Shown here piece after piece: positions 8,022-25,985 of a stretch of DNA of 36,192 bases. A program made the position numbers and the translations under genes. Source of the DNA: a virus. The notes below the pieces were generated by a model, which was not told the DNA's origin, ran no database searches, and saw only the letters and a list, made by a program, of their open reading frames with translations. The DNA lies in the IMG/VR virus record IMGVR_UViG_3300040751_000165, positions 1 to 36,192 of that record, one strand, 5' to 3'. How positions within the stretch are numbered: the stretch's first letter is position 1; the number at the start of each line of letters is the position of its first letter.

Positions 8022-9653
8022 TTAGAACCATGTATCACGATTTCCAGAGTTTATGTACTCTTGTATGTCCTCTGGGCCGTTTAAAACGCCCTCTTCTGGA
8101 TGTCCATCATCTAGTATTCCAAACGGTAACTGCTCATCCTCGAGCATTTTTATTTTATCTTCGTACATTTTTTGTCTGATATCAACATTTGTTATATCCT
8201 TAAAGTATGGCTGTCTTACTAGCCATGAGAACAAAACGCATGTCATCACCAAATCATCATGTGAACCTTCTTCTGCTTGATATGATACACCCTTACCAAT
8301 GAATGAAGATAATTCCGATATAAGATCCATATCTTCGATAATTAGTTTGTCGTTCTCAATCAAGTCTTTTAGATTAGAACAGCCAATTCTTTTTACTGGC
8401 TTTGTTGTTCTAACACCAAACTGTACATTTGATGAGAATCCTCCACTGACTACTTGTCCTGCTCTACCTTTATTTGCTGTAGATATTAGATTCTCATATT
8501 CCAAGTCATTATGCATAATATCTGCAACCTGGCCGCCGATATCATTAACTTCTATAAGAACAAAGGCTTCATTATATAGTCTTGCGATAGTGTGTATATA
8601 GTTTGGATATAGCAGTGGTGAAATATCTTTACTACGAAATTTTGCACATAATTTATATGGCACCTCTGAAGCATCAAATACTGTAAATGCTGAGTAGTCT
8701 TGTCCTACACCTCTTGATACATCACACACTGCAACATATATGCGATCTGCTCTTGGTTCGACATAGATATCAGCACCGTTATAATTTCTTAAAGGCCTCT
8801 TAAATGCAAGTTGTCGTAGTTTTGTGGGATGAATTAGAGTATTGGCCGATCCTAAGAAATTACATTCAAATTCTTGATTGAATTGCTCTTCACTGGTGTT
8901 AGCAATGGTTTCTTCTTTCCATTTCTCATCACGGCCAGGGACTGATGACCAATGTATTTCGATTGGTATGTATTTACTATTACCCTCTTCAGCATCAGTC
9001 CACATCTTGTAGAAATGATTCATACCATTCGGTGTAGAAACGATAATGACTTTTGAAGTAGCACCAGATGAAATTGTCGGGTAAACTGAACTAAAAAATT
9101 CTTCAGCAAGATTGTTGCCAATAAATGCAAACTCGTCCAAGAAAATAAGATTGTATGATCCACCACGAATAGCAGATGATGACGTTGCCGCCGCTACAAC
9201 TTTAGACCCGTTCTCTAGTTCGATATTACCCTTGTTCCAAACAACAACTCCCTGTTGTAGCCACTTAGGGAGATATTCATATGCGAGGGTAATTTTGCCT
9301 AGAAGTTCTCTAGCCAATGAGCCTTTGTTAGCAAGAATAGCCACATTCTGCTGGTCTTTGAAAAGAATTTCGTGTAGGATATATGCTGTTGTCGTGGTAG
9401 ATTTGCCTGACTGCCTAGGCAGTTTGCATATCGAAAATCTGTTTGCACTAAAAGTGCGAACCATCTCTTCTTGAAAATCATACATTTCAAAAGGTATAAG
9501 ACCCTTGTCTACATTTACAATCTTTACATATTGTCTTGCAAAGTAGACTGGATCTTTCATACACTTCAGATATTCTTCTACCTGATCTTTTGTAAATTCT
9601 ACAGGTACATCCGCTTTTTTAAGATTTGGATTACCTAGATAGGTCTCAGCCAT
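8022..9653 (-). CDS. 17: Large terminase subunit gp17 (packaging ATPase and nuclease)
   Basis: The motor that cuts concatemeric DNA and pumps it into the prohead through gp20. The 543-residue protein has both domains. In the ATPase: Walker A PRQSGKST (79-86), Walker B LIFLDE (169-174) and the coupling motif STPNG (206-210). In the RNase H-like nuclease: Asp311 in AVCDVSRG, Glu368/Asp371 in LIEVNDIGG, and the acidic pair Asp466-Asp467 in SHDDLVMT. All expected catalytic residues are present. It is shorter than T4 gp17 (610), as often seen in marine relatives. Its start overlaps the end of the nuclease gene by eight bases, so translation is likely coupled. Confidence 0.97.
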   Translation of the reverse strand: MAETYLGNPNLKKADVPVEFTKDQVEEYLKCMKDPVYFARQYVKIVNVDKGLIPFEMYDFQEEMVRTFSANRFSICKLPRQSGKSTTTTAYILHEILFKDQQNVAILANKGSLARELLGKITLAYEYLPKWLQQGVVVWNKGNIELENGSKVVAAATSSSAIRGGSYNLIFLDEFAFIGNNLAEEFFSSVYPTISSGATSKVIIVSTPNGMNHFYKMWTDAEEGNSKYIPIEIHWSSVPGRDEKWKEETIANTSEEQFNQEFECNFLGSANTLIHPTKLRQLAFKRPLRNYNGADIYVEPRADRIYVAVCDVSRGVGQDYSAFTVFDASEVPYKLCAKFRSKDISPLLYPNYIHTIARLYNEAFVLIEVNDIGGQVADIMHNDLEYENLISTANKGRAGQVVSGGFSSNVQFGVRTTKPVKRIGCSNLKDLIENDKLIIEDMDLISELSSFIGKGVSYQAEEGSHDDLVMTCVLFSWLVRQPYFKDITNVDIRQKMYEDKIKMLEDEQLPFGILDDGHPEEGVLNGPEDIQEYINSGNRDTWF

Positions 9654-10065
9654 TCAAATTCACAAACTCACGATTTTTTAGATGAGCCTCTTTTATATTA
9701 TCTTTAGACTGGCCATAGTAAGGAACTGCATGATATTTCTCAATCATATATTCATTGACTGTTTGATCAGCATAATTTGTAGTTCTTCTAAGTGATCCTA
9801 GAATACGACCAAATTTACCCTTTGCATCATATTCATTACATTCAAGAATCATCCATTCATCATCACACATGCCTTTTAGAAATTCTTTGGCAGCCAAGCC
9901 ATAGACCTTTTCTTCTTTATCTCTAGTGCGTGATTCGGGAGTGTCGATACCGTAAAGACGAACTCTCTCATCTTTTAGCCAAATGCCAAAACCAAGATCC
10001 AGATCAATGTCAACTGTATCACCGTCAATAACTTTTACAACTTTACATCTATATGAATACATCAT
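9646..10065 (-). CDS. Staphylococcal-nuclease-like (thermonuclease) protein
   Basis: A 139-residue protein with the single SNase fold motifs: IDGDTVD (13-19), RLYGIDTPESR (36-46), YGLAAKEFL (55-63) and KFGRILGSL (84-92). The residues matching SNase Arg35, Glu43 and Arg87 are Arg36, Glu44 and Arg87, and the calcium-binding aspartates correspond to Asp16 and Asp41, so an active calcium-dependent nuclease is likely. No signal peptide is seen, so it should act in the cell or virion. It overlaps the gp17 start by eight bases. T4 has no such gene between its terminase subunits. A role in DNA trimming, host DNA breakdown or packaging is inference. The ribosome site is weak (AGGTAAG next to ATGATG). 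Confidence 0.88.
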   Translation of the reverse strand: MMYSYRCKVVKVIDGDTVDIDLDLGFGIWLKDERVRLYGIDTPESRTRDKEEKVYGLAAKEFLKGMCDDEWMILECNEYDAKGKFGRILGSLRRTTNYADQTVNEYMIEKYHAVPYYGQSKDNIKEAHLKNREFVNLNG

Positions 10066-13274: not shown

Positions 13275-13844
13275 TTATTTAAATTTAGGCCCTTCAATCC
13301 AAGATACTAGGGAACGCCTTACACCTTTTGTTACGGGTGTAACACGATGAGGAAGAAATGATGGAAAAAGAAAAACAGAACCCTTAGTTCTAAATCCCTC
13401 AGGTTGAGGATATTGTCTGTCTAACTCAAAATCTCCACCTTCATACTCTGAAGGATCAGTAAGTTGTATAACTATGCTCAATTTTCTATCTGTCATTCTT
13501 GGATTTGCCCAAAAAGTATCAATATGCCAGTCATATTTTCCCTGACTAACCGCTTCATATTTTGTATATTGAATATCACGAATAAGAGAAATATCAAAAC
13601 CAAACGCATTTCTATTTCCCTCACATGCATATTCCCAAATCATTTCTGAGATGAATTTGCTATTGGGTCTCTGTCTATCAATCCATCTGACTTCACTACT
13701 TCTAAACTTGTCTTTATCATTATCTGTAGAACCGTCAAATCCTATATTTGCTATCTCTGATGGATATGTTTCACATTCTTTAATTATTGAATCTATTCCA
13801 GAATCAGAAATAGCACCTTGCCAAAACTGCCATAGTTGAATCAT
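13275..13844 (-). CDS. Fe(II)/2-oxoglutarate-dependent oxygenase (prolyl 4-hydroxylase-like)
   Basis: A 189-residue non-haem iron oxygenase. The iron ligands are visible as His107-x-Asp109 (in YDWHIDTFW) and His166 (in FLPHRVTPV). Arg177 in GVRRSLVSWI is the expected 2-oxoglutarate anchor, and EYEGGDFEL (133-141) is the usual glycine-rich strand. The whole double-stranded beta-helix is present, so it should be active. Homologues in bacteria and cyanophages hydroxylate proteins or small molecules; the substrate here is unknown. It sits alone between a strong terminator and the gp13 late promoter, with its own leader containing two palindromes, so it may not be a normal late gene. GAGG serves as ribosome site. 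Confidence 0.9.
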   Translation of the reverse strand: MIQLWQFWQGAISDSGIDSIIKECETYPSEIANIGFDGSTDNDKDKFRSSEVRWIDRQRPNSKFISEMIWEYACEGNRNAFGFDISLIRDIQYTKYEAVSQGKYDWHIDTFWANPRMTDRKLSIVIQLTDPSEYEGGDFELDRQYPQPEGFRTKGSVFLFPSFLPHRVTPVTKGVRRSLVSWIEGPKFK

Positions 13845-13959: not shown

Positions 13960-15636
13960 TTAGCCTTTTAATTCGTCAATCTCAGCCTTAAGTTCTTTGA
14001 TTGCCTCAATAAGTAGAGGTACAAGTTTTTCATATGAGACTGTAATATAATCTAGGTTCTTATCGGCATGCTCTGGAGCATCATTGATAGGCGCAGGTGA
14101 TACAACTTCAGGAAGAACTGATTGAACTTCCTGGGCGCTTACACCAACTTGTCTATCGTCATTGTCGTAGCCAAGGTCTTTAGCGGCTTCGTTTTCAGTG
14201 AAGTAGTAACCATTAAGGGCGGCAACTTTATCCATTGCGCTATCAATTTTGCCTGAGAAATCTTTAAGTCTAGCATCTGAATAGTAAGCAGTGATGTTGT
14301 TGGTTGCACGAATTTCACCAGCAGTTCCAGAGGCGGCAGTACCAACACCAAGTGAATTTACCTGTGCATCAGAACCTGTGCTAAAGCCACCGGCTGGCCC
14401 TGTTGGGCCTGTAGGACCTGTTGGACCAGTAGAACCGTTTGAACCCGCTGGACCAGTAGGACCAGTTGGACCAGTAGAACCGTTTGAACCCGCTGGACCA
14501 GTTGGACCAGTTGGACCTACGAGAGCGGCGTTTGCGATAGTTGCTTTACGCATTGCACCGGCTGTAACGTCATACACTGCAATTGTATCATTAGATGCAA
14601 TTGAGTTTTCGTTTGTTAGGCTATCAACATCTAGGGCAAGTGTGTGAGAGATACCTTCACCTGATGTTGCACCAGACGATGTGATACCAGTTCCACCAGT
14701 TACTGTTCCTACATAGTTACCGCTTGTATCAGTACCAAGAACTACATCGTTATTGTAAGTAGTAGAGATAGAAACTGCATTAGCAGAGAATGATGCTGAA
14801 CCAGTAACATCACCAGTCAAGGTCACAGATGCAGTAGCACCTAGTTTCTGACCAATGTTTGTTGCGACTGTTGTTGAGAATGAAGCATCGTCACCAAGAG
14901 CGGCAGCAAGTTCATTCAATGTGTCTAGTGCGGCTGGTGCAGAGTCTACGATATTTGCTACAGCGGTATCAACATATGTCTTACTTGCGGCATCTGTTGC
15001 GGCAGATACAGTGTCAACACCTTGAATACGACCTGTGCCTGATAAAGTGATATCACCACCACCAACTGTCAAGTCACCAGCGAGTGTGATATTATCAGTA
15101 AGTTTGTTGCCATCAACTGAGTCATTGGCAATTGTTGTTGCTACTGATACTGCATTAGTAGAAAATGCTGTGGCCGATGCTGTTACATCGCCTGTTAGTG
15201 CTACTGTAGCACCAGCACCAAGTCTAGCATTAGCAAGAGTGACAGTGTTAGCAACTTGCATACGATCATTGACACTTGTTGTCAATGTTGTGAAACGTGG
15301 CTCTGAGTTAGCAATATAAGAATTTAGATTTGCAGTAACGCTAGTATGTAAAGCCTGTGTATTAGCGACTGTCATATAGCCAGCAACTTCTACTGTCAAG
15401 TTTGCAGTAGATACCACGTTAGCGACAAGACCACTGAATAGAGCTTGCGTGTTTGCGACTGTCATATAGTTGTTGAGTTGTGTAGAACTAGCACCAATAA
15501 CATGACCACCCTGTGTACTACCATCATGTACACGGAGTTGGTTAGTGGTTGTGTCCATTGTTACTTCGCCTTCAGCACCAGTGAAAACGTCTTGAGCGGC
15601 AGTATTTCCGCGGCGTAATTGTAGTTGAGTTGCCAT
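13960..15636 (-). CDS. Tail fibre with collagen-like segment and S74 chaperone end (558 aa)
   Basis: A likely host-binding fibre. Order of parts: a small N-terminal cap (1-50, QLQLRRGN and GAEGEV), two VANTQAL motifs (59-66 and 89-96), beta-strand shaft modules, a [20 protein letters not shown] module (219-238) common in phage fibres, a Gly-x-x collagen-like stretch (374-417) and a C-terminal S74 intramolecular chaperone (from about 450). The self-cleavage pair should be Ser453 and Lys458 in [22 protein letters not shown] and a terminal coiled coil ([20 protein letters not shown]) complete the domain. The first 135 residues are nearly the same as in the 933-residue fibre next door. A strong terminator follows. 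Confidence 0.88.
14389..14517 (-). repeat. Collagen-like Gly-Pro-Thr coding repeat
   Basis: About 43 residues of unbroken Gly-x-x triplets, built from a 45-base unit coding [15 protein letters not shown] twice and a final run of GPT. Trimeric collagen-like segments are known in phage fibres as rigid or flexible linkers. Tandem identity makes length change by recombination likely. Confidence 0.85.
15443..15478 (-). repeat. 36-base exact match to the neighbouring fibre gene (copy A)
   Basis: This stretch is identical to 18413-18448. It lies in the near-duplicate 5' thirds of the 558 and 933 fibre genes, which resemble each other along about 340 bases (15300-15636 and 18270-18606). Confidence 0.85.
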
Positions 15637-15804
15637 TTTTCTCTCTTCTAGTTAGTTTATCTAAACTTTTTTTAATTATTATAGGTTCTTATTTAAGTCA
15701 AAGCCAAAACATATTGAATGTCGGCCATTTTCTGTAGAGTACTGTACTAACCACTTCTACTACATTATACAAATTGTTTAACATTTATTAACTTATGATT
15801 GCTG
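15637..15804 (-). other. Intergenic gap between the two paralogous fibres
   Basis: 168 bases without a supportable gene. On the minus strand there is a TATAAT at 15769-15764 without a clear -35, and near the 558 gene a short AGTTTAGATAAACT inverted repeat beside a run of A (T on the plus strand). I see no exact late promoter, so how the 558-residue fibre gene is transcribed is unclear; read-through from the 933 gene is possible. Confidence 0.4.
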
Positions 15805-18606
15805 TTATTTAGCTTCTAGTGTCGCAATACGGGCTTCTAATTCTTGTATAGTCTTAACAAGTAATGGGACGAGTTTGGACTGGTCAATGCCCTGCATTAC
15901 AGGAATAGTATTGCCATCGTCATCGAGTTTGTTGTCGCCAACCGAAACGCCGTCTGGCAGTTCTTCACCGTCTTTCCAAACTTCAACTTCATCCATAGTT
16001 CCGGTTACAGATTCGGGGACAACCGCCTGTGCCTCATGTGCTAAGAAGCCATCGACTGTGGTATCTGAGTCAGCGATAAAGTTAAAACGTGCTGGCTTAA
16101 GTTGCTTGAGGCGGGTTGTAGCATCCCAATCATAAGTTACGTTTTCTTTTAGGCGATAGTCTGATGATGTGACGTAACTTATACCGCTTGTGCCGTTTTG
16201 TGAAATGCCACCGATGGTAGTGCCATTGTATCTAAATACATAATACGAATAACCAGTACCAGCACCTGACGCATGATCCATTATTGCATATGCACCCCCA
16301 GAAACTGGTATTAAGTTCCAATAAGAGTTTGAGTTATTAAAACCAATTTTTACGCTGGTGCTGCTGTCGATGCGCATAGCCTCTGAACCATCGACATAGA
16401 AACCCATTAGACTGTTCGCAACCTCTCCATCATTATCTGAATAAAATCGCAAGTTGCCATCACTTGCGTCAATCGTGCCATCGCCACTTGTGTCGTTGTC
16501 AGTCAGGTGCAATGTCGGTGAGCCAGACGTTTTCGTAATCCTGACTTCATCAGCCGTCATAGTGCCAGTGACATCCACGCCTGTGGCTGTGGTGGCGAGT
16601 TTAGCACCCCCATTGTGATAAGCAGTTAAACTTCCACCATCTGTCATTGCCAGATAGTATTTATTTGCAGCCGAATTAAGAAACTCAATGCTAGTACCAA
16701 GAACATTGAGATTCCCAGTGCCTTGTTCACTTATATATGAGTTAGAACCATCGTGATAAATCTGCAAATCCGAAGCATTTCCGAAGATGGCCTTGCCATT
16801 GTCAGCAAATGTTGCATTGCCTGTTACGTCAATGCCAGTGCTACTTGTGTTCAACTTCATAGAACCGCCATAATTTAGACGAGCCTCACCATCACTTGCA
16901 ACAGCAGAAATAATAGTATTTGTGCCGCTACTGTCTTGAATCTCAAAGTTTGCCGCACGAATTTTTAGATTACCTGTTCCAGTGTCGTCAATATAACTTG
17001 CAGACCCATCGTGGTAAATCTGCAAGTCAGACCCAGCACCGAATATGGCCTTGCCATTGTCAGCAAATGTTGCATTGCCTGTTACGTCAATGCCTGTGGC
17101 TGTGGTGGCGAGTTTAACTGCATTACTGTTGTATAGTGAAACTGCACCACTTGGTGCATCAGCATAAATAAGTGTGGCAGTTGCCTGAGCATTTTCTAGC
17201 TTAAAATCATCTGCAAGAATTCGTAAGTTTCCAGTGCCAAAATCATGAATAACACTGTCTGTCCCACTATGATAAATTTGCAAGTCAGACCCAGCACCAA
17301 AGATGGCCTTGTCACCATCGCCGAAATTAATGTCGGCAGAAGTAGTCATACCGTCTGTGGTAATTACGCCAGTTACGTCAACGCCTGTGGCTGTGGTTTC
17401 TAGCTTCTGCGCATTGTTATGATAAAGTCGAACACTGTCAGCATTACGACCCCAAAGAAAAAAGTCACCAGAAGCGTTTGTCAGCTTTAGGTTACTTGCT
17501 CGCACAAACAAGTCTCCAGTCTGATCGCCACCTTCTGCAATATAACTATTTGACCCATCGTGATAAATCTGAAGGTCATCGCCAGTACCAAAAACCAATT
17601 TGCCATTATCTGCAAGAGCAATATCTTCAGAACCAGTTGTCCAACGATCATTCGCTTCATCCCAGACAAACTGAACATTTGGTGATGTACCACGCTCAAC
17701 TTCAATACCAGCATTCTCTGATGGAGTGCCGGTTTCATCAGCGTTAAGTGTGATAATTGCATCATTGATATTAACTATATTACTGTCAACTGTTGTTTGT
17801 GTACCAGAAACAATCAAGTTACCGGAGACAACTAAGTTCTCCGCAATCGTGATGTTGTCTGTCAACTTAGCACCAGTAACTGTATTATTAGGAATTGTTG
17901 TAGAAATCGTTACTGTATTTGATGAAAATGATGTAGAACCTGCCGTAACATCACCTGTAAGTGTTACTGAAGCAGTAGCACCAAGTCTGGCATTTGCAAG
18001 AGCAATAGTATTTGCTACCTGCATACGATCATTAACATTTGTTGTTAATGATGTGATACGAGGATTTGTGTTAGCGATATAGGAATTAAGATTTGCTGTA
18101 ACATTATTGTGAAGTGCTTGAGTATTAGCTACCTGCATACGATCATTTACAAGTGTATTCGTATTAGCTACCTGCATACGATCACTGACCAACACTCTAA
18201 TAGCATTATTAGTTGATGTTAGATTCGTATTCAGAAGATCGACACGACCTATCTCGGTAGTAATTCTTGGGTTTGTGTTAGCAATATAAGAATTTAGATT
18301 TGCAGTAACAGAATTATGAAGTGCTTGCGTATTTGCAACTGTCATGTAGCCAGCAACTTCTACAGTAAGATTCGCTGTAGATACTACGTTAGCAACTAAT
18401 GTAGAGAATAGTGCTTGCGTGTTTGCGACTGTCATATAGTTGTTGAGTGAGGCACCACTGCCTCCCACAATATGACCACCCTGAGTTGAACCATCATGCA
18501 CACGAATTTGATTCGTAGTAGTATCAATAGATATTTCACCCTCAGCGCCAGTAAAGGCATTTTGCTGTGTCGTGTTTCCACGTCTTAGTTGAAGTTGGAT
18601 AGCCAT
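15805..18606 (-). CDS. Tail fibre with four LQIYH repeats and S74 chaperone end (933 aa)
   Basis: Likely a trimeric, host-binding fibre. The first 110 residues match the 558-residue fibre closely. Then come repeated VANT motifs with DRMQVANT (142-200), a shaft module with NLIVSGTQTTVDSN (263-276) shared with the 987-residue fibre, and four tandem modules with DLQIYH at 344, 441, 528 and 613, each about 85-97 residues and ending in TTATGxDVTG or similar. The C-terminal S74 chaperone has Ser815 and Lys820 in SSDYRLK, GFLAHEAQAVVPESVTG (853-869) and a final coiled coil. The S74 domain should cut itself off after trimer folding. AGGAG precedes the start. Confidence 0.88.
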   Translation of the reverse strand: MAIQLQLRRGNTTQQNAFTGAEGEISIDTTTNQIRVHDGSTQGGHIVGGSGASLNNYMTVANTQALFSTLVANVVSTANLTVEVAGYMTVANTQALHNSVTANLNSYIANTNPRITTEIGRVDLLNTNLTSTNNAIRVLVSDRMQVANTNTLVNDRMQVANTQALHNNVTANLNSYIANTNPRITSLTTNVNDRMQVANTIALANARLGATASVTLTGDVTAGSTSFSSNTVTISTTIPNNTVTGAKLTDNITIAENLVVSGNLIVSGTQTTVDSNIVNINDAIITLNADETGTPSENAGIEVERGTSPNVQFVWDEANDRWTTGSEDIALADNGKLVFGTGDDLQIYHDGSNSYIAEGGDQTGDLFVRASNLKLTNASGDFFLWGRNADSVRLYHNNAQKLETTATGVDVTGVITTDGMTTSADINFGDGDKAIFGAGSDLQIYHSGTDSVIHDFGTGNLRILADDFKLENAQATATLIYADAPSGAVSLYNSNAVKLATTATGIDVTGNATFADNGKAIFGAGSDLQIYHDGSASYIDDTGTGNLKIRAANFEIQDSSGTNTIISAVASDGEARLNYGGSMKLNTSSTGIDVTGNATFADNGKAIFGNASDLQIYHDGSNSYISEQGTGNLNVLGTSIEFLNSAANKYYLAMTDGGSLTAYHNGGAKLATTATGVDVTGTMTADEVRITKTSGSPTLHLTDNDTSGDGTIDASDGNLRFYSDNDGEVANSLMGFYVDGSEAMRIDSSTSVKIGFNNSNSYWNLIPVSGGAYAIMDHASGAGTGYSYYVFRYNGTTIGGISQNGTSGISYVTSSDYRLKENVTYDWDATTRLKQLKPARFNFIADSDTTVDGFLAHEAQAVVPESVTGTMDEVEVWKDGEELPDGVSVGDNKLDDDGNTIPVMQGIDQSKLVPLLVKTIQELEARIATLEAK
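16750..17330 (-). repeat. DNA repeats coding the LQIYH modules
   Basis: Near-identical blocks recur about every 255-290 bases inside the 933-residue fibre gene. The clearest pair is around 16790-16835 and 17045-17095 (both reading GGCCTTGCCATTGTCAGCAA and on through the module end on the plus strand), with a looser third copy at about 17270-17330. Confidence 0.75.
18413..18448 (-). repeat. 36-base exact match to the neighbouring fibre gene (copy B)
   Basis: Same sequence and orientation as 15443-15478. The pair could support recombination that deletes or swaps the segment between them, fusing the 933 cap to the 558 tip. Confidence 0.85.
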
Positions 18607-18618
18607 CGTCAGCTCCTA

Positions 18619-19329
18619 TTAAACATTTAGGTCTTGAGAGTTGTCTACGCTGTCGGCTACTGATCTTAGGTCAATAATTCCTAATGATGCGACATCCAGA
18701 TCCGTATCTGTTGGAAACGCCGAAACATTACTGAGAGTTACTAACTCTCTCTTTGCGAAAACAGTACTTACAAAACTATCTGTAGTTGGTGAAAATCTTA
18801 GTTCTACATTAGCACCATTAAGTGCGGCCGAGAAGTCTCCCAGTTTTGCTTGCTCTGCAATGACAACATCACCATATTGTGAGAAGTCAACTGAAGATCC
18901 TCTGTGAACAATAAGAATTTCGGATACTTGAAATCCATCAAGATTTGAAATCTGTGCAACATACTTTGCTGAACGAAAGTTTGCTTTTGGAAACGAATCC
19001 ACTTTTTGTGGAGTGTTGGTACTGACTGTAGCAGTAGTTTGATCAGCACCAGCATCTTGAAATGTAACATTACCAGCACCATCTGTTTTCAGAATTTGTC
19101 CTGCCGTTCCATCTGCGGAAGGAAGAGTAAATGGAGTGGTGTTACCGACAGTAAGCGTACCAATACGACTTGTCGCTGTGTTAGCGCCAAGTTCAAATAC
19201 GTTTGATCCGTCGGAAGAAAAGAATTTACCATCTCTGGTATTAAGTGCGATTTCGCCTGTAGCGATATCAGATGTAGAAGGCGCCTTTCCTTGAATGGAA
19301 CTGCGTTTAATCTTTAGAATTGATGCCAT
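18619..19329 (-). CDS. Fibre-cluster protein with shared N-terminal cap (236 aa)
   Basis: A 236-residue protein that begins MASILKIKRSSIQGKAPSTS, then TGEIALNTRDGKFF: the same N-terminal cap as in the 566, 131, 558 and 933 fibres. Residues about 70-95 (LPSADGTAGQILKTDGAGNV) are a common fibre module. The rest (RSAKYVAQISNLDGFQVSEI, then VHRGSSVDFSQYGDVV) is a separate beta-rich domain I do not recognise, perhaps a receptor-binding tip. It has neither an S74 end nor the Gly-Gly-aromatic tail. It lies 12 bases before the 933 gene and after a strong hairpin, with a GAGGAG ribosome site. Confidence 0.8.
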   Translation of the reverse strand: MASILKIKRSSIQGKAPSTSDIATGEIALNTRDGKFFSSDGSNVFELGANTATSRIGTLTVGNTTPFTLPSADGTAGQILKTDGAGNVTFQDAGADQTTATVSTNTPQKVDSFPKANFRSAKYVAQISNLDGFQVSEILIVHRGSSVDFSQYGDVVIAEQAKLGDFSAALNGANVELRFSPTTDSFVSTVFAKRELVTLSNVSAFPTDTDLDVASLGIIDLRSVADSVDNSQDLNV

Positions 19330-19385
19330 ATCTATGGCTCCTCTTAGTCAGTGTCTATAAAGACAGTTAAAACTAAAATAATATA

Positions 19386-19429
19386 AATTAGAGCGTCAAC
19401 CCTATAGAGATAAGGTCAACGCTCTAATT
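19386..19429 (-). terminator. 20-pair hairpin after the 566-residue fibre gene
   Basis: On the minus strand 19429-19410 pairs with 19405-19386 over 20 positions without a bulge (three G-U pairs) around a CTCT loop; 11 outer pairs are perfect. The flank is TATATTATTTTAG, so the T-run is imperfect. G-U pairs would be A-C mismatches on the other strand, so the minus-strand RNA is the structured one. It starts ten bases after the fibre stop and may end or attenuate that transcript. Confidence 0.75.
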
Positions 19430-19438
19430 ATTTAGTTC

Positions 19439-21139
19439 TTAGTATGAACCGCCATCAATGATAGCGTTCAACTGTGCTAGTGTATAACCAGTATCAGTAA
19501 TATCAACTGTAGATGTCGGCTCAACGTCTAGACCTGTGTAGAAGTTGAAGTGACCAGTTGTTGCATCTCTGAAATAACCAGTGTATTGTACAGCGGAGTT
19601 TCCTGCGACAACATACTTACCATAGACACCAGTATCAACTGTGTCGGCAGCGTTGTTAGCAGAAAGTTTCAACATGCTATCGTCAACATTAACTGTTGAT
19701 GATGAGATGTATGTTACTGCACCTTCGACTGTTAGATTACCGTCAACGTGGGCATCACCAGAGACTGTCAAGTTTGCACCGACAGAAGTGTTACCAGTTG
19801 CAACGATGTTTGCACCAGTTGTAAGGTTCTGTACAGTTACGTTGTCTGCCAGACCGAGAGTTGCTGTTGATGCTTCACCAGGAGTGTGAGTTACAACAAT
19901 CTCATTAGCAGTACCAGAAACATTACTCATAAAGTTGCCTGTTGTGTCTGTACCAAGAGCAACAGAGTTTGGCTGGATTGCTGTTGTCATCGTCACGCCG
20001 GCAGAACCGTCAAAGTTGACTGTACCTACAACATCGCCTGAAAGAGCAATCGCTCTTGCTGTAGCAAGTTTGCTTGATGTGGCCGCATTACCAGAGGTAT
20101 TAGCACCAATGTTGTCTGCAATTGCAACTGTTACACCCGCTGTCTCTGAGCCTGAGCCGGTGACAGTAAGTGAACTATTTGATGCGGCGACAGTAGCAAC
20201 ATAGTTACCAGTTGTCTTTGTACCAAGAGCAATCGAGTCATCAGCATATACGTTTGCAGTAAGTGATTGATTACCGATTTGTACCGGTGTGATAGCACCA
20301 TCTGCAATTGCAGCCGTTTCTACTGACTTAGCACCATAAGTGTTAGCAGTAAGAGCATTAGCACCAACTTTTGCGGCTGTGATAGCGGCATCAGCGATAG
20401 CGACTGTACCAACGGCCTTGGCAGCAAGAGTGTTTGCTGTAAGAGCGTTAGCGCCAACCATTGCAGAAGTGATGATACCATCAGCAATGTTGTTTGCTTG
20501 AATGCCTTTAGCACCGATCTGAGCAGCACCTACAGCACCGTCTGCGATTGCGGCTGTTTCTACTGACTTAGCACCATAAGTGTTAGCAGTAAGAGCATTA
20601 GCACCAACTTGTGTCGCTGTGATAGCACCGTCAGCGATAGCGGCGGTACCAACAGCCTTGGCAACAAATGTATTTGCACCAAGTGAGTTAGCACCAACTT
20701 TAGCGCCGTTGATAGCGCCGTCAGCGATTTGAGCCCGGGCAATACCACCTGCCTTAACAGCAACAGCACCGGATGTTACGGCAAAGTCGGCTGCGGCAAA
20801 GGAAGCAATACCTTTAGCAGATGTTGTAGCGTCAGAACCACCGAATGTGATGGAACCGTTTGACTGCATGGTAACATCCATGCCAGTCCCTGCTTGAAGA
20901 AAAATACTATTCGTAGAATCAGATGTTTCACCGAGTAGTTTGATGTAAGCACCGTCTCCACTGACAGAACCTTCATCTACGGTAATTCTGAAATCTTCAC
21001 CGCCAATGGCTGATACGCCAGTGCCGTTACCAACATATAGTTTTCTATCAAACAGGTTAACCGCAATTTCACCAGTTTCAAGGGAGCCAGGGGCCGCACC
21101 TTGGGTGTTATTACGCTTTAGTTTAATAATGGAAGCCAT
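19439..21139 (-). CDS. Repeat-rich tail fibre with shared cap and Gly-Gly-Ser-Tyr end (566 aa)
   Basis: Probable fibre. It has the N-terminal cap (MASIIKLKRNNTQG and TGEIAVNLFDRKLYVGNG, 1-40), a KGIASFAAADF module (109-119) also found in the 987 fibre, and then six IADG-type repeats with IAD at 138, 168, 198, 218, 248 and 278 (30, 30, 20, 30, 30 residue steps; consensus near AIADGAITAxxVGANALTANTYGAKSVETA). Residues 190-220 return as 270-300, an 80-residue higher-order repeat. Later come ALGTKTTGNYVAT and NLTVSGDAHVDGNLTVEG shaft modules. It ends AQLNAIIDGGSY. An exact late promoter lies inside the upstream 94-residue gene. AGGAG is the ribosome site. Confidence 0.82.
   Translation of the reverse strand: MASIIKLKRNNTQGAAPGSLETGEIAVNLFDRKLYVGNGTGVSAIGGEDFRITVDEGSVSGDGAYIKLLGETSDSTNSIFLQAGTGMDVTMQSNGSITFGGSDATTSAKGIASFAAADFAVTSGAVAVKAGGIARAQIADGAINGAKVGANSLGANTFVAKAVGTAAIADGAITATQVGANALTANTYGAKSVETAAIADGAVGAAQIGAKGIQANNIADGIITSAMVGANALTANTLAAKAVGTVAIADAAITAAKVGANALTANTYGAKSVETAAIADGAITPVQIGNQSLTANVYADDSIALGTKTTGNYVATVAASNSSLTVTGSGSETAGVTVAIADNIGANTSGNAATSSKLATARAIALSGDVVGTVNFDGSAGVTMTTAIQPNSVALGTDTTGNFMSNVSGTANEIVVTHTPGEASTATLGLADNVTVQNLTTGANIVATGNTSVGANLTVSGDAHVDGNLTVEGAVTYISSSTVNVDDSMLKLSANNAADTVDTGVYGKYVVAGNSAVQYTGYFRDATTGHFNFYTGLDVEPTSTVDITDTGYTLAQLNAIIDGGSY
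20316..20611 (-). repeat. 240-base higher-order repeat in the 566-residue fibre gene
   Basis: About 55 bases starting at 20316 are repeated exactly from 20556, 240 bases apart (80 codons), within a field of looser 60- and 90-base repeats. In-frame unequal crossing-over would shorten or lengthen the fibre by 80 residues. Confidence 0.8.
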
Positions 21140-21179
21140 TTACTTCTCTCCTACTATGTTATGTTATTCTTCTTATTAA

Positions 21180-21464
21180 TTATTTTCTAGCAAACTGATT
21201 CTTACGAACTGATTTTCTATTATCATTGTTCCTATTTATAACCACTTGCTTATCCACGTGATTTTTATAATATTCTAGATCAGATTCTAATTTCTGAATC
21301 TTCTCTTTTTGTTGTGCTACCTGTATGATCACTGGAGTGGGAACAGGCATACGTTTCGCTATTTCAATCTTATTGGTCAAGTCTCTTATGACTTGGTCCT
21401 TCTGATCAAGTTGTTGTTTCAATTCAACTACAAGTGAGGCATAATTTAAAGCATCGTCTGACAT
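21180..21464 (-). CDS. Coiled-coil protein in fibre cluster (94 aa)
   Basis: I do not recognise this 94-residue protein. It is helical with heptad-like spacing: ALNYASLVVELKQQLDQKDQ and VIRDLTNKIEIAKRM (about 5-39), a proline-rich break (PVPTPVI), then a second coiled coil (AQQKEKIQKLESDLEYYKNH) and a basic Asn/Arg-rich tail. No signal peptide is seen. This looks like a small oligomer or chaperone, perhaps a helper for folding or attaching the fibres around it, by analogy with T4 gp57A and gp38 type factors; that is only a guess. Its 3' end carries the late promoter for the 566-residue fibre. AAGGGTG precedes the start. Confidence 0.75.
   Translation of the reverse strand: MSDDALNYASLVVELKQQLDQKDQVIRDLTNKIEIAKRMPVPTPVIIQVAQQKEKIQKLESDLEYYKNHVDKQVVINRNNDNRKSVRKNQFARK
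21233..21240 (-). promoter_or_regulatory. Late promoter TATAAATA inside the 94-residue gene
   Basis: Exact TATAAATA on the minus strand, 94 bases before the 566-residue fibre ATG and inside the coding end of the coiled-coil gene. It would let the fibre be made apart from the small genes upstream. Confidence 0.7.
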
Positions 21465-21484
21465 ATTTTTTCACCCTTATAATG

Positions 21485-21880
21485 TTAATATGTTCCACCG
21501 TCCATGTCATCAAAAACTGGAGTGTTATTGGAAGCGATTTGCATCACTTTGCCAACAGCACCCGTAATTGCTTCTGTCTTACCACCCGCTTTAGTGATAA
21601 GAACTCCGTTTGTTGTATAACCCGAAAGGGTTAGTGTATTACTTATGACCAAATTTGATACTGATGGATCACCGCCAAAAAGAATGCTTTCAAGGTTAGC
21701 GACTTTATCGACTATAAGTTTACCACCAATAAACTCTACACTTACCGGAGAACCAGCAGTAGTAGTTTGACCAATAAACATTTTATTTGATGAAAAAGAA
21801 TACGCAATTTCACCATTTGCTAGAGAGGATGGGGCGGCTGCGCTTTGGCCCCGTTTAATCTGAATTACTGTATTTGCCAT
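21485..21880 (-). CDS. Small fibre protein with shared cap and Gly-Gly-Thr-Tyr end (131 aa)
   Basis: A 131-residue protein that is almost only the shared ends: N-terminal cap MANTVIQIKRGQSAAAPSSL, then ANGEIAYSFSSNKMFIG (1-37), a short beta body, and the C-terminus VFDDMDGGTY. The last four residues match the pattern of the 566 (GGSY), 121 (GGSF) and 86 (GGAF) proteins. It begins two bases after the stop of the 86-residue gene. It may be a fibre adaptor or a minimal fibre. No enzyme motif is present. Confidence 0.78.
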   Translation of the reverse strand: MANTVIQIKRGQSAAAPSSLANGEIAYSFSSNKMFIGQTTTAGSPVSVEFIGGKLIVDKVANLESILFGGDPSVSNLVISNTLTLSGYTTNGVLITKAGGKTEAITGAVGKVMQIASNNTPVFDDMDGGTY

Positions 21881-21882
21881 GA

Positions 21883-22143
21883 CTAGAACGCTCCACCATT
21901 AATGTTAAAGGTATTAGTCGCTGCATCAAATGACAAAATTGCTCGTTGAACGTAGGTATTTGTTGCTTCGTTGTAAACGAGAATAGCACCGTTTGCCGAA
22001 CTGATTGTTAGATCAACGTCAGCAAGTGCGGTTAGATTGATTGTACCGGTGATATTATTAGCAGCGATGTTACCATGCTTGTCAATAATATCATGGGTAT
22101 TAACCGTCAATCCATTGTCAACACTAAAATTTTTACTTGCCAC
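21883..22143 (-). CDS. Small fibre protein, paralogue of the 121-residue one (86 aa)
   Basis: An 86-residue protein translated from GTG at 22143 (GGGAGA six to eight bases upstream). The last 50 residues, ADVDLTISSANGAILVYNEA then TNTYVQRAILSFDAATNTF and NINGGAF, align with the end of the 121-residue protein without gaps over most of the length. The N-terminal half (SVDNGLTVNTHDIIDKHGNI) resembles a fibre shaft strand pair. It has its own late promoter. Likely a virion fibre component; exact place unknown. Confidence 0.75.
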   Translation of the reverse strand: MASKNFSVDNGLTVNTHDIIDKHGNIAANNITGTINLTALADVDLTISSANGAILVYNEATNTYVQRAILSFDAATNTFNINGGAF

Positions 22144-22182
22144 AATGATTCTCCCGAATTTGGGTTATATGAGGTATGTGAT

Positions 22183-22190
22183 TATTTATA
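22183..22190 (-). promoter_or_regulatory. Late promoter TATAAATA for the 86-residue gene
   Basis: Exact TATAAATA on the minus strand, 40 bases before the GTG start, in the 78-base gap after the 121-residue gene. Confidence 0.85.
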
Positions 22191-22221
22191 ATATAGGAAT
22201 AATTCCATAGATGTGGATATG

Positions 22222-22587
22222 CTAAAAAGAACCACCTTCAAATCGAAAAACATTTTCTGCTGGATCGAATTGTAGTATAGGTCTTTGAACATATGTGTCA
22301 CTGGCTTGATCATATACAAGAATAGAGCCATTTGCTTGGCTCACTGTGGTATCAACATCAACTAAATTATCAAGTCGATTACCTGCGACTTGATTTTGTA
22401 ATGTAATTGTATCAGTAGCGCCTTTGAAAGCAACCTTTCCAGTCGTACCATTTCCATTTCTTAAAGATAAATTAGATGCAGTGCCAGCAAATGCTACAGA
22501 AGGTCTTAGAACAGTTATACCGTTTGTTCCATTTTTTAGGGAGACAGAAAGTACGTTACCACCACCACTTAACGTCACATTTGTCAT
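22222..22587 (-). CDS. Small fibre protein with Gly-Gly-Ser-Phe end (121 aa)
   Basis: A 121-residue beta-rich protein. The C-terminal half, LVDVDTTVSQANGSILVYDQ then TYVQRPILQFDPAENVFRFE and GGSF, is paralogous to the 86-residue protein. The N-terminal half has short repeats (GGGNVLSVSLKNGTNGITVL and SNLSLRNGNGTTGKVAFKGA), again shaft-like. No signal peptide is present. AAGGA is the ribosome site and the late promoter lies 27 bases upstream. Probably a small fibre or fibre-associated protein. Confidence 0.75.
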   Translation of the reverse strand: MTNVTLSGGGNVLSVSLKNGTNGITVLRPSVAFAGTASNLSLRNGNGTTGKVAFKGATDTITLQNQVAGNRLDNLVDVDTTVSQANGSILVYDQASDTYVQRPILQFDPAENVFRFEGGSF

Positions 22588-22686: not shown

Positions 22687-23022
22687 CTATCTTGTTACTT
22701 GTGGAGTTACTGTAACGATACCCTCAACAAGTCTTGATGTATTATTTGCAGAATTTGTTAGTTCTACATCATACACATATCTGCCATCTGCAATGTTAGC
22801 AGTTTGTATTCTGTTGAGGGATAATGTCAACTGGCCAGCCGATCTGGGTGATCCAAAAGTAATTGAAAAAGCGACTGCCGTATTAGAGGTGTAGTGCTTA
22901 CGCATTTGAGCGGCAGCAGTATATCCTTCTAGATTCTGAGAGGATCCATCATCACCAGTTACGGTCAATGTTGTTGAATAGTCAGTACCCTGATCTATGA
23001 TGATATTTGCTTTTGCTGCCAT
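22687..23022 (-). CDS. Small beta-sandwich protein, baseplate/fibre attachment type (111 aa)
   Basis: A 111-residue protein with the look of a single beta-sandwich: KANIIIDQGTDYSTTLTVTG at the start, SSQNLEGYTAAAQMRKHY, then LSLNRIQTANIADGRYVYDV and a final VEGIVTVTPQVTR. The pattern (an opening 'I-x-x-G-x-x-Y/F' strand, an 'L-x-G-Y' turn, and a late 'G-R-Y-x-Y-D-V' strand) recalls the N-terminal domain of baseplate upper proteins such as BppU and short proteins of marine myoviruses. It starts on the stop of the 987-residue fibre (TAATG), so it is coupled to it. An adaptor holding that fibre is plausible but unproven. Confidence 0.75.
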   Translation of the reverse strand: MAAKANIIIDQGTDYSTTLTVTGDDGSSQNLEGYTAAAQMRKHYTSNTAVAFSITFGSPRSAGQLTLSLNRIQTANIADGRYVYDVELTNSANNTSRLVEGIVTVTPQVTR

Positions 23023-25985
23023 TACTTGCTCTCTAGTTCTTTAACTCTGGCAGAAAGTTCTTTTACTGCCTCAATAAGTAGTGCGTGTAGTGCATCATAA
23101 TTTACAGAAAGATGACTATCATCACTATTTAGATCACTCACCTCTTTTACTGCCTGTGGTAGAACCTCTAAGACATCCTGAGCAATGACACCAGCACTTT
23201 TGTTACCATTTTTTATCCATGTAAACTCAACACCGTTTAGTTGTTCTATCTTTTCAAGTGCATTATCAACAACATTGATATCAGTCTTCAGTTTAATATC
23301 TGAAGAAGTTGTGGATGAGTTTGAATCTAGATTACCATCAATATGAAGATCACCGTCGTTTTCCAGACGCATATCAAGAACGCCATCAAGATACCAGTCA
23401 TGCGTTGTAGCATTAATTACATAGTAATCGTTTGTGTCTGGCCCTATTTGTGTAACATCACCACGCAAATCTGATTCGATTGAAATCGTATGACCAATGC
23501 CCTCACCAGTAGGGGCGCCAGTTGTGTCGATACCTGAGCCAGCGGCGATTGTTGCAACATAGTTACCGGTTGTCTTTGTGCCGAGGGCAACAGAGTTGTC
23601 ATCAACAGCCGAAGCAGAACCAGTTAGATTACCAATAAACGTGTTTGCAGTTAAAGTGCGATCACCCAGTGTCCAGTTGTTTGTAGTCTCATCAAACAAG
23701 AATGAGTAGTTTGTAGCAGTGCCACGCTCAATTGTTATGCCACCATTTTGAGATGGGGTTCCAGTCTCGTTACTATTCAATACAATGATATTGTCAGCGA
23801 TATTAACTGTCTCTGAATTTACAGTTGTGGTTGTACCAGAGACAATTAAGTTTCCAGTGACAATAACATTTTCACCTACATTTAACTGACCTGTAACTGT
23901 TACATCATCTGGAAGACCAACTGTTACTGTGCCGTTAGAGCGTGAAACCGTTGTCTCATTTGCTGTAGCAGAGATAGTAAGAACAGCACCAGTCGTAGCA
24001 TTCTTGAGTGAGACTGCACCAGATGAAATATCAAAGTCGCCACTATCGAATGAAGCAACACCTCTTACTGAAGCTGTTGCTGGGTCGATGACATCATCAT
24101 AAGTCGTGCCGTCAGCGGTTGATATACGAATATTATTATTTGCTGAAGTATATGTAAGTCCAGTCACACCAGCAACTGCGGTATTTGAAATGCCTATCAC
24201 TTGTCCTCTATCGTTTACCGTAACTATAGGAATCTGTGAGGCAGAACCGTGTGTTTGTAGCGTTGCTGCCATTGTGTTGGCAATCATAGTCGTTGTGACT
24301 GTCTTTGCACTAATCGTATTATTGGCATGTAGTTTAGCGTTAGCACCAACGATTGTTGTTGCGCCATCTTTAATACCACCGCCGATGAAAGCAGTGCCAG
24401 TAACATGAGCGTTACCAGAAATAGTTGCTCTATCTCCACCAAGAGTTGCGGCTTCATCAACTGTCAATATATCAATTGACGCAGTGCCATCAATATAGAG
24501 GTCTTGCCACTGTAGTAGATTTGTACCTAGATCATAAGTATCATCAGCATCTGGTATCAAAGTAGATGCAATATGAGCAGTAATTGTTAGATTGTCTGAA
24601 GCATCATTACCTATGATTGTTGTGCCATTAAACTCTGCAAGAGTTGTAGCGTGTACATTTGTAAATCTACCGACTGGTGAAGAGAATGTCTGACCAGAAG
24701 CAACAGACGTTGTTCCGTTTACAGTTAGATCACCATTGATAGTTGCATTATTGTCAACATTTATAGTGTTAGCATATACTGTATTTGCATAGACTTCATG
24801 CCAACGATTGTTTGTTGCACCCATGCTTCTCTGTGTGCCAGTTTGTGGATCAAAGTCTGAATCAATCTGTGCAGTGATTGTCAGTGTATCAGATGAAGCA
24901 TCACCGATATTAACATCGCCATTGAGTGAGAATCCGCCATTGAATGTTGCTGTGCCATTAGCAGTGAATGCGCCACTTACTCCTAGTGTATTGAATACGC
25001 CAGCGCCACCATTAGTGGTTTGTGCAAAGAGTGTATTCCATTTACGAGTTGTTGAACCAAGATTTCGTGTACCATTTGGTTGTGGAATGAGAGAACTGTT
25101 GACACCTTGTGATGCACCAGTAGCAACTTCTAAAATATCTACTTGTGCAGTACCATCAATATATAGATTTCTAAACTCACGATTTGGCGCACCCAGATCA
25201 ACTGCATCATCACTTACTGGTAGAATATTTGCGCTTGTTGTTACACCAGCGGCTGTTACGTTAGCAGTGAATACTGCTTCACCATCAGATGTTACATGAC
25301 CAACAATAGCATTGGCTGAGTCTGCAATTTGAAAGCGACTGTCGCCAGAAGCATCAACAAGTTTTAGATGAACATCAGAGTCACCTGCAACTCCGTCTGA
25401 TGCAAGATGAAGGAATGCATAATCCGTTCCGTTTGACATTACAAGGGCAGGTTGGCCGCCCTGTGCAGTAAATGATGAGTTTGCGCCAGACAAAATGATA
25501 TTTGAAGCGTTTGATGATAGGTCTGTAATATCTCTAAGAGTTAGCGATTTGAAATCAGGGTTGTCAGTAGTGCCACTAAGTCTCATAAATTGACCAGAAG
25601 TTCCGCCACTAATGATTAAGCGATCAACCGCACCAAGATTTACTCTGTCAGTACCAGAAGTTTGAAATATTACATTACCTGTAAATGTAGCATTTGCTGA
25701 GACTGTAACTTGTGAGCCATTAAATGTTGTATTAGAAGATACTGCAAGCGCCCCACCAGTTCCGCTGGTTGTATTACCGCCCTTGATTGTTGAAGTTCTA
25801 AGATTGGTAGCACTAAATGTGCCTGAGACATGACCGTTACCTTTAGCCGCACCGCCTCTGTTAGCAGAACCCGCTCTAGATACAGTTACCACATTGTTAC
25901 TCATAGTGGTTGCTGCCAGATTCGTATTCAATCTCCAAGTATTAAAACTGTCATTTAGATTTGTGTTTGATACTGCAACAGTCAT
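23022..25985 (-). CDS. Long tail fibre with S74 chaperone end (987 aa)
   Basis: The largest fibre of the cluster. It lacks the shared N-terminal cap and begins MTVAVSNTNLNDSFNTWRLN, which fits a different attachment. Long beta-repeat shaft follows with recurring units around LYIDGTA, DDAVDLGAPNREFRNLYIDG and NRWHEVYANTVYANTINVDN, the SVRGVASFDSGDF module, and the NLIVSGTTTTVNSETVNIAD module shared with the 933 fibre. The C-terminal S74 domain has Ser895 and Lys900 in SSDIKLK, then SAGVIAQDVLEVLPQAV and a final coiled coil. Its start overlaps the upstream stop as ATGA and its stop overlaps the next ATG, so three genes (71, 987, 111 residues) are coupled. Confidence 0.88.
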   Translation of the reverse strand: MTVAVSNTNLNDSFNTWRLNTNLAATTMSNNVVTVSRAGSANRGGAAKGNGHVSGTFSATNLRTSTIKGGNTTSGTGGALAVSSNTTFNGSQVTVSANATFTGNVIFQTSGTDRVNLGAVDRLIISGGTSGQFMRLSGTTDNPDFKSLTLRDITDLSSNASNIILSGANSSFTAQGGQPALVMSNGTDYAFLHLASDGVAGDSDVHLKLVDASGDSRFQIADSANAIVGHVTSDGEAVFTANVTAAGVTTSANILPVSDDAVDLGAPNREFRNLYIDGTAQVDILEVATGASQGVNSSLIPQPNGTRNLGSTTRKWNTLFAQTTNGGAGVFNTLGVSGAFTANGTATFNGGFSLNGDVNIGDASSDTLTITAQIDSDFDPQTGTQRSMGATNNRWHEVYANTVYANTINVDNNATINGDLTVNGTTSVASGQTFSSPVGRFTNVHATTLAEFNGTTIIGNDASDNLTITAHIASTLIPDADDTYDLGTNLLQWQDLYIDGTASIDILTVDEAATLGGDRATISGNAHVTGTAFIGGGIKDGATTIVGANAKLHANNTISAKTVTTTMIANTMAATLQTHGSASQIPIVTVNDRGQVIGISNTAVAGVTGLTYTSANNNIRISTADGTTYDDVIDPATASVRGVASFDSGDFDISSGAVSLKNATTGAVLTISATANETTVSRSNGTVTVGLPDDVTVTGQLNVGENVIVTGNLIVSGTTTTVNSETVNIADNIIVLNSNETGTPSQNGGITIERGTATNYSFLFDETTNNWTLGDRTLTANTFIGNLTGSASAVDDNSVALGTKTTGNYVATIAAGSGIDTTGAPTGEGIGHTISIESDLRGDVTQIGPDTNDYYVINATTHDWYLDGVLDMRLENDGDLHIDGNLDSNSSTTSSDIKLKTDINVVDNALEKIEQLNGVEFTWIKNGNKSAGVIAQDVLEVLPQAVKEVSDLNSDDSHLSVNYDALHALLIEAVKELSARVKELESK

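What the first reader, a model, noticed from the sequence alone, without database searches (positions are those of the whole stretch)
13960..22587. Mix-and-match build of the fibre cluster: one cap, two kinds of ending
Five proteins (558, 933, 236, 566, 131 residues) share an N-terminal cap of the form [IL]-[KQ]-[IL]-[KR]-R ... G-E-[IV]. Four (566, 131, 121, 86) share a Gly-Gly-x-aromatic C-terminus. Three (558, 933, 987) end in S74 chaperones. Combinations differ: cap plus S74, cap plus GG-tail, cap with neither, S74 without cap, GG-tail without cap. This suggests interchangeable docking and ending parts in one locus.
Basis: partly seen in the sequence, partly recalled or inferred. Interest (0 to 1): 0.65.

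Follow-up and report, generated by a model that had tools for sequence, protein, structure and literature searches.

The report
Snap-together joints of phage tail fibres
This phage builds one host-recognition fibre from several separate proteins, each probably ending in a tiny "plug" (Gly-Gly-x-aromatic) that fits the "socket" at the start of the next one; the same joint appears in the classic phage T4 and in unrelated marine phages, which makes a poorly understood step of virus assembly easy to test.

Summary
A cap profile built without the window picks exactly the five named proteins (E 4e-26 to 6e-15). Four proteins end in GGx[FY], a motif about 200-fold enriched at C-termini in related loci. 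Three end in S74. The "mix-and-match" reading is only partly right. Across about 90 IMG/VR loci the parts obey a grammar: an LtfC-type anchor; one small tag-only starter; one or two cap+tag links; one cap-only terminator, in fixed gene order. Cap type predicts the ending: 7 label changes on the cap tree against 38 in shuffles. T4 suggests the mechanism. The gp37 N-terminus is the same cap family (E 1e-12), its partner gp36 ends DFGYY, and the gp36 C-terminus is known to bind the gp37 N-terminus. When loci are sampled by cap alone, 91 of 150 upstream genes end in the tag, against 44 of 622 other ORFs. Isolate genomes carry tags if and only if they carry this cap type (7 against 11). HTVC008M has the starter fused into one long fibre and has lost both. 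I infer that the C-terminal tag plugs into the next protein's cap, making a head-to-tail segmented fibre. Direct docking was not shown; only monomers could be modelled.

The parts
22687..23022 (-). 111 aa LtfC-type anchor/collar protein, first gene of the cassette
   Evidence: phrog_3304 'L-shaped tail fiber protein assembly' E 7e-26; family profile hits solved T5 p132 and DT57C LtfC chains, E 8e-5 and 9e-5; directly upstream of the starter in most loci
22222..22587 (-). 121 aa starter: N-terminal strands, C-terminal beta-meander, tag EGGSF, no cap
   Evidence: AF2 pLDDT 81-91 over residues 71-120 in blocks of ten, low at the last residue block; family alignments
21883..22143 (-). 86 aa second starter (paralogue of 121), tag NGGAF, no cap
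   Evidence: 52% identical to 121 over its last 61 residues
21485..21880 (-). 131 aa link 1: type A cap (residues 1-46) plus tag MDGGTY
   Evidence: cap profile E 4e-26; AF2 pLDDT 82-87 over residues 11-50; alignment A3
21180..21464 (-). 94 aa coiled-coil-like accessory protein; no tag here, but the same slot holds a coil ending GGTF or DDF in other phages
19439..21139 (-). 566 aa link 2: type A/B cap plus tag IIDGGSY
   Evidence: cap profile E 1e-21
18619..19329 (-). 236 aa terminator: type B cap, no tag; cap family shared with T4 gp37 N-terminus
   Evidence: cap profile E 2e-17; cap tree
15805..18606 (-). 933 aa fibre: type C (Mtd_N) cap, S74 chaperone, no tag; separate fibre
   Evidence: PF18454 9.5e-11, PF13884 7e-6
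13960..15636 (-). 558 aa fibre: type C (Mtd_N) cap, collagen-like GPT repeats, S74 chaperone, no tag; separate fibre
   Evidence: PF18454 1e-11, PF13884 5e-11, Collagen 1e-6; Mtd 1yu0 E 3e-4 over residues 1-89
23022..25985 (-). 987 aa S74 fibre with no cap and no tag; similar N-terminus seen in L096
   Evidence: PF13884 1e-15

Best explanation
The cluster encodes one segmented host-recognition fibre, plus separate S74 fibres, built by a plug-and-socket rule. An LtfC-type anchor (111 aa) sits on the virion and takes up the N-terminal strands of a small starter (121 or 86 aa). The starter's flexible C-terminal tag ([DNE]-G-G-x-[FY]-COOH) docks into the N-terminal cap of the next trimer (131). 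Shown here: the parts, their order and numbers, tag-cap co-occurrence, and homology of the cap to the T4 gp37 N-terminus with a gp36 tail of similar form. Taken from the literature: gp36 C-terminus binds gp37 N-terminus, and LtfA N-terminal strands insert into LtfC. Inferred: that the tag itself is the contact, which tag meets which cap, and that the starter binds the anchor.
For: Tag enrichment and tag as the only near-invariant part of the starter family. Fixed order anchor, starter, link(s), terminator. Of 56 complete loci most have 1 starter, 1-2 links, 1 terminator; apparent missing starters are ORF-filter artefacts and most missing terminators lie at contig ends. P-SSM2, which seemed to lack a terminator, has one elsewhere (214874, E 3e-12, annotated 'phage tail fiber-like') and two LtfC-like genes. 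T4 gp37 N-terminus matches the terminator cap profile, E 1e-12. gp36 orthologues end DFGx[YF](S) and the next gene has the cap in 20/20 loci; an optional trailing S also occurs in cassette tags. gp36 C-terminus binds gp37 N-terminus (PMC9603124; PMC3004832). In a set sampled by cap only, 91/150 upstream genes end in the tag against 44/622 other ORFs, Fisher p 2e-44, and 75/89 tagless caps have a tagged ORF within 2.5 kb upstream. Tags if and only if A/B caps: 7 isolate genomes with both, 11 with neither. HTVC008M: starter (44% identical over 62 aa to Mosig's) fused into a 1020 aa fibre; tag and A/B cap both absent. AF2 leaves the tag low-confidence in both monomers. LtfC homology and LtfA-LtfC strand insertion (PMC10713586).
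Against: No complex could be modelled, so docking is not demonstrated. The gp36 tail is DFG, not DGG, and no gp36 structure was found. The two starters of this window (121, 86) break the one-starter rule. Coil proteins also carry GGTF or DDF without a dedicated cap. L096's split link ends GGEV, without the aromatic. Some cap genes have no tagged neighbour (14/89). Isolates are partly near-relatives (P-HM1, P-HM2, MED4-213), and tags were searched in only 15-60 kb of each tagless genome.
Confidence: 0.76

Rival explanations
1. All tags bind one common receptor on the virion or on the LtfC-type anchor, so the tagged proteins are parallel fibres rather than a chain.
For: The anchor gene accompanies tags in all six tagged cyanophage, pelagiphage and Limnohabitans isolates, and tags sit on several proteins of one locus.
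Against: T4 has the gp36 tail and gp37 cap with no LtfC hit. Podovirus-like loci L111/L114 show tags with no LtfC at that place. HTVC008M and S-SSM7 keep LtfC without tags or A/B caps. A hub model does not predict one tagless cap protein behind the tagged ones.
Confidence: 0.12
2. The tag is a self-contained trimer-closing end: the aromatic residues pack together at the fibre tip and have no partner.
For: It sits at the very end of trimeric-fibre-like proteins; the starter and p131 both have beta strands before it.
Against: It also ends coil proteins and 65-residue cap-only proteins. It tracks with the presence of a downstream cap. AF2 gives it low confidence as a monomer, which does not decide between the two.
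Confidence: 0.09
3. The shared endings are only common ancestry or composition, with no current function.
For: Starters 121 and 86 are paralogues, and starter and p131 C-termini may be related.
Against: The last residues are the most conserved ones while the rest diverges. At least four unrelated contexts carry the tag. About 200-fold enrichment over interior positions.
Confidence: 0.03

Closest known systems
T4 distal long tail fibre joint gp36-gp37
   Same: gp37 N-terminus is the same cap family; gp36 ends D-F-G-x-[YF]; gp36 C-terminus is known to bind gp37 N-terminus (PMC9603124)
   Different: T4 has one such joint and tail DFG rather than DGG; the window has two starters and two links in series, and an LtfC-type anchor instead of gp34/gp35
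Bordetella phage Mtd N-terminal domain (Pfam PF18454, Mtd_N)
   Same: 558 and 933 are clear members; A/B caps are distantly related (hhalign about 95%)
   Different: A/B caps, including T4 gp37, are not recognised by Pfam and form the tag-linked subfamily
T5/DT57C LtfC-LtfA fibre attachment
   Same: 111 aa protein's family profile matches solved LtfC chains and its gene precedes the fibre genes
   Different: In T5 the fibre starts in LtfA itself; here a small starter with a tag comes between, except in HTVC008M where it is fused
A-1(L) neck fibre gp82-(gp81)14-gp80
   Same: adjacent genes for starter, link and end joined head to tail (PMC10966104)
   Different: no cap and no Gx[FY] tag

Membership tests
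Mtd_N (PF18454) fibre N-terminal domain | Pfam match above the curated cut-off at the N-terminus (558, 933) | tested here: met
   558 (44.7 bits) and 933 (41.9 bits) against cut-off 26.3
   21.8 bits, 14.1 bits, none; filed only as a distant relative, hhalign about 95%
T4 gp36-gp37 type joint | distal protein begins with the gp37-type cap | tested here: met
   terminator cap profile hits the gp37 N-terminus, E 1e-12; leave-window-out profile hits 20/20 gp37s, E 1e-13 to 1e-17
T4 gp36-gp37 type joint | proximal protein ends D-F-G-x-aromatic | tested here: inconclusive
   G-x-aromatic is shared; the residue before that G is G here and F in gp36
T4 gp36-gp37 type joint | physical C- to N-terminal contact | not testable with these tools
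   only monomers could be modelled; no gp36 structure found
gp36 (PF03903) family | Pfam Phage_T4_gp36 domain in the tagged proteins | tested here: not met
   none of the window proteins match, so the tag is shared but not the protein family
LtfC | sequence homology to solved T5/DT57C LtfC | tested here: met
   7qg9_R 8e-5, 8hqz_Q 9e-5 with the family profile; the window protein alone scores below Pfam's LtfC cut-off
LtfC | dodecameric collar taking up fibre N-terminal strands | not testable with these tools
   known for DT57C (PMC10713586)
S74 intramolecular chaperone fibres | C-terminal PF13884 | tested here: met
   558, 933, 987

The most novel reading that the evidence does not exclude
Gx[FY]-COOH plus the gp37-type cap is a general joint code of tailed phages. 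It lets fibres be built from starter, link and terminator trimers and lets whole fibres move between myo-, sipho- and podovirus-type tails.
Probability: 0.6. Interest if true: 0.75.

Novelty: new variant of a known kind. Interest (0 to 1): 0.66.

Why it matters
It turns a set of hypothetical proteins into an ordered fibre with predictable joints. It gives a residue-level, testable candidate for the T4 gp36-gp37 joint; a 2022 review (PMC9603124) says no atomic structure of a whole T4 long fibre had been presented. It explains how fibre modules can move between unrelated phages: only a five-residue tail and a 45-residue cap need to match. It also gives a genome-reading rule for host-recognition fibres that Pfam does not see.

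Tried and rejected
Free shuffling of caps and endings: rejected by the cap tree and fixed order. LtfC as the general tag receptor: weakened by T4, L111/L114, HTVC008M and S-SSM7. A-1(L) neck fibre homology: no cap or tag. PDB matches for starter and link profiles: none useful. Fold search of the two AF2 models: nothing significant; p131's top rows include phage hyaluronidase and Mtd, the starter had none of interest. Genome-contig scan with A2: no relatives. DNA-level search for near relatives among phages: none. Profile A1 was too divergent to scan with. Apparent lack of starters in L039, L042, L057, L061, L066, L068 and L069 was an ORF-overlap artefact.

Full report
What the window is. A 36,192 base IMG/VR virus fragment with a T4-like structural region. 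Its portal is closest to cyanophages and pelagiphage Mosig, at 56-58% identity. No phage in the isolate collection matches the cluster at DNA level.

Check of the observation. A cap profile made from 97 relatives without any window sequence hits exactly 131, 566, 236, 558 and 933 (E 4e-26 to 6e-15). Pfam sees Mtd_N clearly only in 558 and 933. Four of 30 selected window ORFs end in GGx[FY]; the interior rate in related proteins is 8e-4 per position. S74 is in 558, 933 and 987. One qualification: 121 and 86 are paralogues.

The motif is conserved. In 42 and then 80 IMG/VR loci related to p131, small starters, cap proteins and many coil proteins end in [GA]Gx[FYW]. 205 of 1191 distinct plus-strand ORFs have GGx[FYW] ends, against 0 of 220 on the other strand. 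In the starter family the last G and F are invariant. Consensus of the tagged cap proteins: [LI][DN]GG[TS][FY]. LtfC-type neighbours never carry it (0 of 76).

Grammar. Gene order is anchor, starter, link(s), sometimes a coil, terminator. Of 56 complete loci, 37 had one tag-only starter, one or two cap+tag links and exactly one tagless A/B cap. Missing starters are present but had been dropped by the overlap filter, and most missing terminators are at contig ends. On a tree of 116 caps the tag label changes 7 times, against 38 in shuffles, so cap and ending are inherited together. The window has two starters (121, 86), links 131 and 566, terminator 236, and two type C fibres (933, 558).

Portability. 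The same cassette occurs in P-HM1, P-HM2, MED4-213, P-SSM2 and Mosig, in Limnohabitans phage DC31 of 76 kb, and in contigs that look podovirus-like (L098, L111, L114) or carry a lambda-J-like gene (L099) (the backbone assignments rest on my reading of neighbouring genes, not on a test).

Partner of the tag. Searching isolate genomes with the terminator cap profile found T4 gp37 (E 1e-12). T4 gp36 lies just upstream and ends VQDFGYY. In 20 T4-type loci gp36 ends DFGYY, some with a trailing S, and is followed by the cap. More distant ones end DFGTF, DFGSF, DFGEF or DFGTY. The literature states that the gp36 C-terminus binds the gp37 N-terminus (PMC9603124; also PMC3004832). Sampling by cap alone, 91 of 150 upstream genes end in the tag against 44 of 622 other ORFs (p 2e-44), and 75 of 89 tagless caps have a tagged ORF within 2.5 kb upstream. 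Seven isolate genomes have both tag and A/B cap, eleven have neither. In HTVC008M the starter domain continues into a 1020 aa fibre, and both tag and A/B cap are gone.

Anchor. The 111 aa family matches solved T5 and DT57C LtfC chains. In DT57C, LtfC forms a ring that takes up N-terminal strands of the fibre (PMC10713586). The starter's N-terminal strands may do the same; this is inferred.

Structure predictions. AF2 of p131: cap confident (pLDDT 82-87 over residues 11-50), tail low. AF2 of p121: C-terminal beta-meander confident, last residues lower. This fits a flexible plug but does not show docking. Fold searches gave no significant match.

Relation to known families. Type C caps are Mtd_N. 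A/B caps, including the gp37 N-terminus, are outside Pfam but related to type C (hhalign about 95%) and close to each other (99%). Segmented head-to-tail fibres are known (T4; A-1(L) neck fibre, PMC10966104). The tag-cap code and its spread were not found in the papers I could search, which is not proof that it is undescribed.

Limits. Simple ORF calling; loci chosen by homology; isolates partly related; tags searched in 15-60 kb of the tagless genomes; no multimer modelling.

Noticed in passing
window 13275-13844 and 13960-15636: A 2OG-Fe(II) oxygenase-like gene (identified by eye, no family search run) sits next to the 558 aa fibre that carries collagen-like Gly-Pro-Thr repeats; it could hydroxylate them.
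   Followed up: no
window 9646-10065: A 139 aa protein that by eye resembles a staphylococcal-type nuclease lies between the terminase genes.
   Followed up: no
L007:3780-4217, L026:11362-11973, L126:9217-9423: Coil proteins in the same slot end in DDF instead of GGTF; all 38 distinct coils of this family end in F. Their partner is unknown.
   Followed up: partly
L108:8001-11707, L109:804-4579, L113:4825-7934, L096:7995-11916: Split links: a cap protein without tag is followed by a protein starting MAI.D.QK.D.L.KK; in three of them it bears the tag, in L096 it ends GGEV.
   Followed up: partly
L375:2174-5236 (HTVC008M): Starter domain fused to a 1020 aa fibre, with loss of tag and A/B cap.
   Followed up: yes
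L002:2137-3887: The link gene is split into two ORFs (354 and 250 aa), probably a frameshift or sequencing error.
   Followed up: no
window 23022-25985 and L096:3083-7309: The capless S74 fibre shares its own conserved N-terminus with a related locus, a second kind of docking end.
   Followed up: no
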